Positions 24,374-30,864 of a DNA stretch of 64,000 bases are shown here, piece by piece. Within the stretch, counting starts at the first letter, position 1, and every line of letters begins with the position of its first letter. Made by a program: the position numbers and the translations under genes. The notes beneath the pieces were generated by a model. That model saw only the letters and a program-made list of their open reading frames with translations, ran no database searches and was not told the origin of the DNA. This DNA comes from Planctomycetia bacterium (GTDB taxonomy: Bacteria; Planctomycetota; Planctomycetia; Gemmatales; HRBIN36): contig JAEUIE010000059.1 in NCBI GenBank assembly GCA_016795155.1, positions 1-64,000 on the forward strand, read 5' to 3'.

Positions 24374-24712
24374 ATGTATCGATTGTTCATTGCCGGATGT
24401 TGTGCAGTCGCATTGATCGGCTGCAGCGGATCGAGTGGTTCGGTTCAAAAAGGCGCCGTCTCCACTACGTTGGGTGAGGGAATAGAACTGGTAGTTCTGA
24501 ACCTTCCAGGCATGACATGAGGTGGCTGTGCCGCTTCGGTTCGAAGCGACCTGACCAAGGTAGAAGGCGTTAGCGACATACAGACCGATACCTCTACCCG
24601 TTTGTGCTCATTCCAATTGAAGAACAAGAATCTGGATCTGAAAGCCACACTGGATAAATTTGCCGAGACCAACACACATCTTGCAGGATGGAGCAAAGTG
24701 GAGAAGAAGTAG
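24374..24712 (+). CDS. Selenocysteine-containing HMA-domain lipoprotein (UGA read-through)
   Basis: Read straight through one in-frame UGA (24518-24520, codon 49), this is 112 residues ending at TAG. GAGG precedes the ATG by eight bases. The N-terminus is a lipoprotein signal, 'MYRLFIAGCCAVALIGC', with the lipobox cysteine at 17. The mature part is one heavy-metal-associated domain, 'IELVVLNLPGMT-U-GGCAASV', in which the UGA occupies the first cysteine of the canonical GMTCxxC metal site (UxxC). After the UGA the frame has no further stop and keeps HMA character ('VRSDLTKVEGVSDIQTDT' and a second beta-alpha unit). A SECIS-like hairpin follows the UGA, and a terminator follows the TAG. It probably binds Cu, Hg or another thiophilic ion, or acts as a redox protein. 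A premature stop in a decaying gene is the alternative. Confidence 0.82.
24521..24551 (+). promoter_or_regulatory. Putative bacterial SECIS element downstream of UGA
   Basis: Eleven bases after the UGA, CGCTTCG (24532-24538) pairs perfectly with CGAAGCG (24542-24548) around a GUU loop (24539-24541). An outer GGT (24521-24523) can pair with ACC (24549-24551). The distance from UGA to the apical loop is 18 bases, within the range known for bacterial SECIS hairpins read by SelB, and the loop begins with G followed by U as in known elements. The hairpin lies wholly within coding sequence. Confidence 0.75.
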
Positions 24713-24743: not shown

Positions 24744-24776
24744 GCCACCAGCTTGCCTGACTGGTGGCTCATTTTT
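24744..24776 (+). terminator. Terminator after the selenoprotein candidate
   Basis: GCCACCAG and CTGGTGGC form an 8-bp stem around a 9-base loop, followed by TCATTTTT. It lies 32 bases after the TAG at 24712 and marks the transcript as probably monocistronic. Confidence 0.8.
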
Positions 24777-30408: not shown

Positions 30409-30864
30409 CTAATCCCAAACATATCGCTCATCCCAACTTATACCATGTTTACTGCAAATGGTTCGAAACTCGTCCTCGTAAGACATGGCTCGGTGGTGTT
30501 CTTCCTGGTTTTCGATGTACCGATAGACAGTATCCTTCATTGATGAACTGACAGAAAACGCACCATAGCCATTTTGCCAGTGAAAGTCGAAATAATCTGG
30601 CCTTTGCTGCTTAAGCCATTTAGATGGTTCCGTCTTCACTTCCTGAATCAATTGTGCAACCGACCATTTTCTCGAAAGCATGCATAGAATATGAATGTGG
30701 TTTTCGGTCCCATTGATAATCAGAGTTGGCGAATCATTGTCGTTGAGAATGGTTGCCATGTATGCATGCAATCGCTTTCGCAATTCCACATCTTGCAGCC
30801 TGGCAGCACGGTGCTTCGTGCTGAAGATAATGTGCAACAAGACTTGTGAAAGCGATTGAGGCAT
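30409..30864 (-). CDS. Y1 (HUH) transposase, IS200/REP-associated type
   Basis: This encodes 151 residues. The HUH motif is HIHIL at about residues 57-61, and the catalytic tyrosine lies in 'TVYRYIENQEEHH' near 121. 'LLHIIFSTKHRAARL' is the usual N-terminal core. The enzyme makes single-strand nicks at hairpins through a 5'-phosphotyrosine link. There is no TnpB gene. The flanking palindromes in mirror order make a domesticated REP-associated transposase (RAYT) more likely than an IS200 copy. All key residues are present, so it may be active. Confidence 0.9.
   Translation of the reverse strand: MPQSLSQVLLHIIFSTKHRAARLQDVELRKRLHAYMATILNDNDSPTLIINGTENHIHILCMLSRKWSVAQLIQEVKTEPSKWLKQQRPDYFDFHWQNGYGAFSVSSSMKDTVYRYIENQEEHHRAMSYEDEFRTICSKHGISWDERYVWD

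What the first reader, a model, noticed from the sequence alone, without database searches (positions are those of the whole stretch)
24374..24712. A selenocysteine (UxxC) heavy-metal-associated lipoprotein
Seen: an in-frame UGA replaces the first Cys of the GMTCxxC motif in an otherwise intact HMA domain; 64 more codons follow without a stop and keep family character; a lipoprotein signal, ribosome-binding site and terminator frame the gene. Known: HMA domains bind Cu, Hg or other soft metals through CxxC, and Sec-for-Cys swaps in CxxC sites are the classical selenoprotein pattern. Inferred: an extracytoplasmic metal or redox selenoprotein. Standard gene callers would cut it at residue 48 and lose the functional half.
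Basis: partly seen in the sequence, partly recalled or inferred. Interest (0 to 1): 0.88.

Follow-up and report, generated by a model that had tools for sequence, protein, structure and literature searches.

The report
Envelope selenoprotein with metal-binding HMA fold
This small surface-anchored bacterial protein appears to use selenium (the amino acid selenocysteine, coded by what looks like a stop signal) at the exact spot where related proteins grip metals such as copper or mercury; the same codon and its RNA signal recur in some 20 related genomes, so it is a real protein family that ordinary gene-finding rules would cut in half.

Summary
Window 24374-24712 (+) is a 112-residue lipoprotein gene with one in-frame TGA (24518-24520) at the first Cys codon of the metal loop of an HMA domain (PF00403, E=1.3e-8). 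The genome has tRNA-Sec, SelA, SelB and SelD. Twenty class genomes, including this one, have TGA at exactly this codon with homology on both sides (40-64% identity); dN/dS past the TGA is 0.06-0.15 in close pairs. A SECIS-like hairpin (24532-24548, loop GGUUC) starts 11 nt after the TGA, is kept in all 20 by compensatory changes, and is absent from the three Cys-form members. All 22 TGA-bearing genomes in the class sample have SelA above cut-off, against 208 of 398 overall. Related TGA genes (UxxC and UxxxC) occur in other classes of the phylum. HMA-type selenoproteins are a known kind (P-type ATPase, UxxU protein, MerT/CopZ fusion, GOS 'MerP'), but this lipoprotein family is in neither NCBIfam nor a 2026 inventory of 119 families. 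Best reading: an envelope soft-metal binder with Sec as the exposed ligand. UGA recoding is strongly supported; the metal (versus redox) role is inferred.

The parts
24374..24712 (+). coding sequence of the Sec-HMA lipoprotein: 112 residues with Sec at 49, stop TAG 24710-24712
   Evidence: 19 other class genomes with TGA at the same codon
24362..24367 (+). ribosome-binding site GAGGAA
   Evidence: read from the sequence; similar GGAG motifs precede the starts of homologues
24374..24424 (+). signal peptide with lipobox LIGC, lipidated Cys17
   Evidence: G16 and C17 at least 90% conserved in alignment A2; judged by eye, no signal-peptide predictor was run
24485..24700 (+). HMA domain, beta-alpha-beta-beta-alpha-beta
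   Evidence: Pfam PF00403 at residues 41-82; AlphaFold2 model elements 38-109; best PDB fold match MerP
24518..24520 (+). UGA codon read as selenocysteine (residue 49), first ligand of the UxxC loop
   Evidence: TGA in 20 class genomes, Cys in relatives
24527..24529 (+). Cys52, second ligand of UxxC
   Evidence: invariant in alignment A2
24605..24607 (+). Cys78, family-specific third Cys at the start of strand 3
   Evidence: present in 18 of 20 TGA members and in the three Cys members
24532..24548 (+). SECIS-like hairpin CGCUUC-GGUUC-GAAGCG, 11 nt after the UGA
   Evidence: -9.3 kcal/mol, z -3.3; covariation in 17 distinct sequences; absent in the Cys members
24744..24776 (+). terminator-like inverted repeat (8-bp stem, 9-nt loop) and T-rich tail
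   Evidence: read from the sequence; not listed by the scan

Best explanation
The gene encodes a genuine selenoprotein: an exported, lipid-anchored HMA-fold protein. SelB with Sec-tRNA(Sec) decodes UGA codon 49, directed by a hairpin just downstream in the mRNA. The mature protein sits in the cell envelope and works like a MerP or Atx1-type soft-metal binder: it captures or passes on a thiophilic ion (Cu(I) or Hg(II) most likely) through U49 and C52, probably helped by C78, the selenolate at the exposed first position raising affinity and speeding ligand exchange. Supported by computation: UGA recoding, family conservation, lipobox, fold. Inferred: that the ligand is a metal, which metal, and the role of C78. 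Separate confidences: about 0.97 for Sec-decoded UGA, about 0.9 for an envelope lipoprotein, about 0.55 for metal binding as the main job. The score below is for the whole statement.
For: tRNA-Sec, SelA, SelB and SelD in the same genome. TGA at the same codon in 20 class genomes with conserved protein on both sides and dN/dS 0.06-0.15 past the TGA. SECIS-like hairpin with compensatory changes, 98% of cells paired, covariation 0.352 against 0.098 shuffled, absent in Cys members. SelA in 22 of 22 TGA genomes against 208 of 398 overall. Lipobox conserved. Fold and sequence nearest to MerP and Cu carriers; the P-x-M of the metal loop is invariant.
Against: No protein or selenium measurement. No conserved gene partner that names a metal; the gene stands alone here. 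The AlphaFold2 model is of moderate confidence. An invariant Cys pair plus a third Cys would also suit a redox enzyme. The SelA statistic is not corrected for relatedness.
Confidence: 0.55

Rival explanations
1. It is a selenoprotein but a redox one: U49 and C52 (or C78) form a selenenylsulfide, and the HMA fold serves as an envelope thiol oxidoreductase or peroxide scavenger.
For: Most characterised UxxC selenoproteins are redox proteins (review PMC13188914). C78 could be a resolving Cys; it is kept in 18 of 20 TGA members.
Against: The fold is HMA and not thioredoxin-like; the P-x-M-x-U/C-x-x-C metal loop with its Met is invariant; no redox partner gene is conserved nearby.
Confidence: 0.25
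2. The protein is a dedicated helper of copper enzymes of the envelope such as SBP56 (methanethiol oxidase), delivering copper to it.
For: SBP56 (PF05694) lies downstream on the same strand in G391, G351 and G278 and probably in G240, where both genes lie at contig ends. MTO is Cu-dependent and elsewhere sits beside the Cu chaperone gene SCO1/senC (PMC5739008).
Against: All these genomes belong to one genus; SBP56 is absent from most TGA genomes, and in the window's genome it is on another contig.
Confidence: 0.12
3. The TGA is a true stop, a sequencing error, or ordinary readthrough, and the downstream half is a decaying remnant.
For: No protein data; a TGA in one genome alone could be an error.
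Against: Same TGA in 20 genomes of several families, dN/dS well below 1 past it, a covarying hairpin in the TGA forms but not the Cys members, SelA in every TGA genome, Cys at that place in relatives.
Confidence: 0.02

Closest known systems
MerP, periplasmic mercury-binding protein (TIGR02052)
   Same: Exported single HMA domain; best structural match (1osd, E=1.6e-5) and best NCBIfam match (34.6 bits); GMTCxxC loop at the same place.
   Different: Scores far below the MerP cut-off of 92.55 bits; Sec for the first Cys; lipid anchor; extra Cys78; none of the neighbouring genes examined is a mer gene.
NF041115 UxxU metal-binding (seleno)protein
   Same: HMA-type selenoprotein with Sec in the CxxC loop.
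   Different: Motif UxxU with two Sec; 29.4 bits against a cut-off of 95.
NF045683 MerT/CopZ fusion-like heavy-metal transport selenoprotein
   Same: Heavy-metal selenoprotein with an HMA (CopZ-like) part.
   Different: Longer membrane fusion protein; 20.7 bits against a cut-off of 375.
Cation-transporting ATPase selenoprotein (UxxC) and GOS 'MerP' selenoprotein
   Same: UxxC listed for a metal-transport protein (PMC13188914); a Sec protein named MerP was reported from two marine sequences (PMC2398784).
Atx1/Atox1/CopZ copper chaperones
   Same: Same fold and loop; PDB matches with E of 2e-4 to 1e-3.
   Different: Cytosolic, Cys-only, not lipoproteins (own knowledge); CopZ models score far below cut-off.

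Membership tests
Bacterial selenoproteins | In-frame UGA with conserved protein on both sides and Cys homologues | tested here: met
   20 class genomes with TGA at the codon; Cys in L101, L088, L091 and in other HMA proteins
Bacterial selenoproteins | SECIS hairpin shortly after the UGA | tested here: met
   hairpin 11 nt after the UGA with covariation
Bacterial selenoproteins | tRNA-Sec, SelA, SelB, SelD in the genome | tested here: met
Bacterial selenoproteins | Selenium in the purified protein | not testable with these tools
   needs 75Se labelling or mass spectrometry
HMA domain (PF00403) | Match above the Pfam gathering score and the HMA fold | tested here: met
   35.5 bits against 24.8; fold order and PDB matches
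HMA domain (PF00403) | Binding of a soft metal ion | not testable with these tools
   no assay possible
Bacterial lipoproteins | Signal peptide with lipobox Cys | tested here: met
   LIGC, GC nearly invariant; by inspection of the alignment only
MerP (TIGR02052) | Score above the NCBIfam cut-off | tested here: not met
   34.6 bits against 92.55
NF041115 UxxU metal-binding selenoprotein | Score above the cut-off and UxxU motif | tested here: not met
   29.4 bits against 95; motif UxxC
NF045683 MerT/CopZ selenoprotein | Score above the cut-off | tested here: not met
   20.7 bits against 375

The most novel reading that the evidence does not exclude
A phylum-wide, so far unlisted group of exported Sec-HMA lipoproteins (UxxC and UxxxC types, sometimes in tandem) forms a selenium-based envelope system for soft-metal capture or relay, with a three-ligand Sec-Cys-Cys site unlike known metallochaperones.
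Probability: 0.35. Interest if true: 0.75.

Novelty: new variant of a known kind. Interest (0 to 1): 0.56.

Why it matters
It adds an unlisted, well-conserved selenoprotein family that ordinary gene calling would cut in half just before the functional motif. It supplies natural Sec/Cys pairs in the smallest metal-carrier fold, which makes the question of what selenium adds to metal handling directly testable. It also places Sec in lipid-anchored envelope proteins. It matters less than a first case would, because Sec in HMA-type proteins was known in other families.

Tried and rejected
Rfam over the window found nothing at gathering threshold. The seven genomes of the window's own family gave no second copy, so conservation had to be shown at order and class level. 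Genome-contig, plasmid and viral-contig searches gave only Cys HMA proteins or nothing; their Cys-based peptide patterns cannot find TGA forms well. Gene-neighbour comparison over 18 family loci and the window found no universal partner. SBP56 adjacency looked like a function but is confined to one genus, and most TGA genomes lack SBP56; a paper on SBP evolution mentions no HMA protein (PMC10277263). A family tree was too short to count Sec/Cys switches: 72 columns, many open forks, a single origin of Sec not ruled out. The pair L080/L079 gave dN/dS 0.80 because an indel shifts the ungapped comparison, and was set aside. The promoter and terminator scan listed nothing.

Full report
Observation. 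The frame 24374-24712 on the + strand reads MYRLFIAGCCAVALIGC-SGSSGS...LPGMT-U-GGCAASVRSDLTKVEGV...TRLCSFQL...GWSKVEKK-stop, with one TGA at codon 49 (24518-24520). Pfam HMA covers residues 41-82, across the TGA, at E=1.3e-8. Read by table 11 the gene ends after 48 residues, just before the metal motif.

Machinery. The window's genome (5.28 Mb, 68 contigs, 97% complete) has a tRNA-Sec at C5:90415-90508 (70.7 bits; ARAGORN tRNA-SeC, anticodon tca). SelB (401.9 bits) and SelA (564.3 bits) lie side by side on the window's own contig at C59:93113-96541. SelD (365.5 bits, C12) itself carries an in-frame TGA. Beside the tRNA-Sec lies a thioredoxin/AhpC-like gene with TGA in a WGHW-U-GPC motif. By inference the genome decodes UGA as Sec in several genes.

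Family. Within the window's own family of seven genomes only the window's has the gene. At order level one more genome has it; at class level 27 of 398 genomes match. Reading each match codon by codon shows 20 genes, the window's included, with TGA exactly at the first Cys of CxxC. Three members have Cys there: L101 (a second copy in G278), L088 and L091. Two more genomes have TGA in a longer U-PTG-C spacing, L097 and L098. The lipobox GC is nearly invariant, and P45, M47, C/U49, C52, L60 and F80 are invariant. Codons past the TGA are under purifying selection: dN/dS 0.06-0.15 in four close pairs that align without gaps.

RNA signal. In all 20 TGA genes a hairpin lies at nucleotides 15-31 counted from the U of UGA, with loop xGUxC. 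In this window it is CGCUUC-GGUUC-GAAGCG at 24532-24548, -9.3 kcal/mol, z=-3.3. Over 17 distinct sequences 98% of cells pair, three pairs show changes on both sides, and the covariation score is 0.352 against 0.098 in shuffles (0 of 500 as high) and at most 0.150 in slid versions. RNAalifold finds the same helix. The changes follow the RNA and not the protein: the third base of the codon for residue 54 tracks the first base of codon 58 (GCU with AGC Ser, GCC with GGC Gly), and the third base of the Arg57 codon tracks whether residue 55 is Ser or Ala. The three Cys members have no such hairpin. From my own knowledge, its place and GGU loop resemble the E. coli fdhF SECIS.

Co-occurrence. SelA above the family cut-off is found in 208 of 398 class genomes and in all 22 TGA genomes. 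Drawing 22 of 22 by chance has probability 3.6e-7, not corrected for relatedness. Among genomes with only Cys matches, G187 and G380 have no real SelA, G338 and G394 have low-scoring ones (260 and 297 bits), and G159 has a good one.

Wider spread. A profile search over the phylum found further TGA genes outside the class: G712 (U-GG-C), G515 (U-SS-C), G442 and G530 (U-xxx-C) and G746. In G746 a Cys-type HMA lipoprotein is followed by two TGA-type ones, the second of which starts within the stop codon of the first (TGATG). Hairpins with GU in the loop follow the TGA in these too (by inspection). Whether those genomes hold the Sec machinery was not tested. One class member, L095, joins the Sec-HMA domain to an N-terminal YceI domain (PF04264, E=8.5e-31).

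How it most likely works. The AlphaFold2 model has the beta-alpha-beta-beta-alpha-beta order of HMA domains (mean pLDDT 75-81 over residues 41-80). Its best PDB match is MerP (E=1.6e-5), then Atx1 and other copper carriers. U49 takes the place of the first ligand of the loop, which from established knowledge of Atx1-like proteins is the exposed one that starts metal transfer. By topology C78, at the start of strand 3, lies on the same edge as U49 and C52; no distance was measured. I infer a lipid-anchored soft-metal binder in which selenium raises affinity and exchange speed. A redox role through a U49-Cys bond is the main rival. Neighbouring genes do not decide it: SBP56, a Cu-dependent methanethiol oxidase (PMC5739008), follows the gene in G391, G351 and G278 and probably in G240, all of one genus, but most TGA genomes lack SBP56 and in the window's genome it is on another contig. 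In the window the gene stands alone, with a nitroreductase gene upstream and a DNA-alkylation-repair-type gene downstream, both on the other strand.

Known versus new. NCBIfam holds HMA-type selenoproteins, NF041115 (UxxU) and NF045683 (MerT/CopZ), but this protein scores far below their cut-offs and below MerP's, and three phylum-level relatives do so too. The 2026 inventory of 119 prokaryotic selenoprotein families (PMC13188914) lists a UxxC cation ATPase, the UxxU protein and MerT, but no PF00403 lipoprotein. The GOS survey (PMC2398784) lists a 'MerP' selenoprotein from two sequences. A 2016 planctomycete genome paper reports selenoproteins in that phylum in general (PMC4807772); its supplementary list could not be read. 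So the kind is known and this family appears to be an unlisted variant.

Phylum. I take the organism to be a planctomycete from gene content (DUF1501, DUF7133 and sulfatase genes in these loci). That is inference.

Noticed in passing
G000 C5, L103:7330 onward (about 0.8 kb past the tRNA-Sec): Thioredoxin/AhpC-like gene whose frame runs through a TGA in a WGHW-U-GPC motif: a second likely selenoprotein of this genome.
   Followed up: partly
G000 C12:77743-78672 (L122): selD with an in-frame TGA near its N-terminus (CAG-U-AGK): SelD is probably itself a selenoprotein here.
   Followed up: partly
L166 (G746:C1:4239500-4242500), minus strand: Tandem of three HMA lipoproteins, one Cys-type (GMGCEAC) and two with TGA in the metal loop (U-AS-C and U-GAA-C); the last two overlap as TGATG.
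   Followed up: partly
L097, L098, L148, L152, L141: A second spacing type, UxxxC, with TGA followed by a hairpin, in the same class and in other classes of the phylum.
   Followed up: partly
L095 / L106 (G297): Sec-HMA domain joined to an N-terminal YceI domain (PF04264, E=8.5e-31).
   Followed up: partly
L117, L113, L126, L167: SBP56 (methanethiol oxidase) gene downstream of the Sec-HMA gene in one genus.
   Followed up: partly
window 30409-30864 (-): IS200-like Y1 transposase gene (PF01797, E=6e-23).
   Followed up: no
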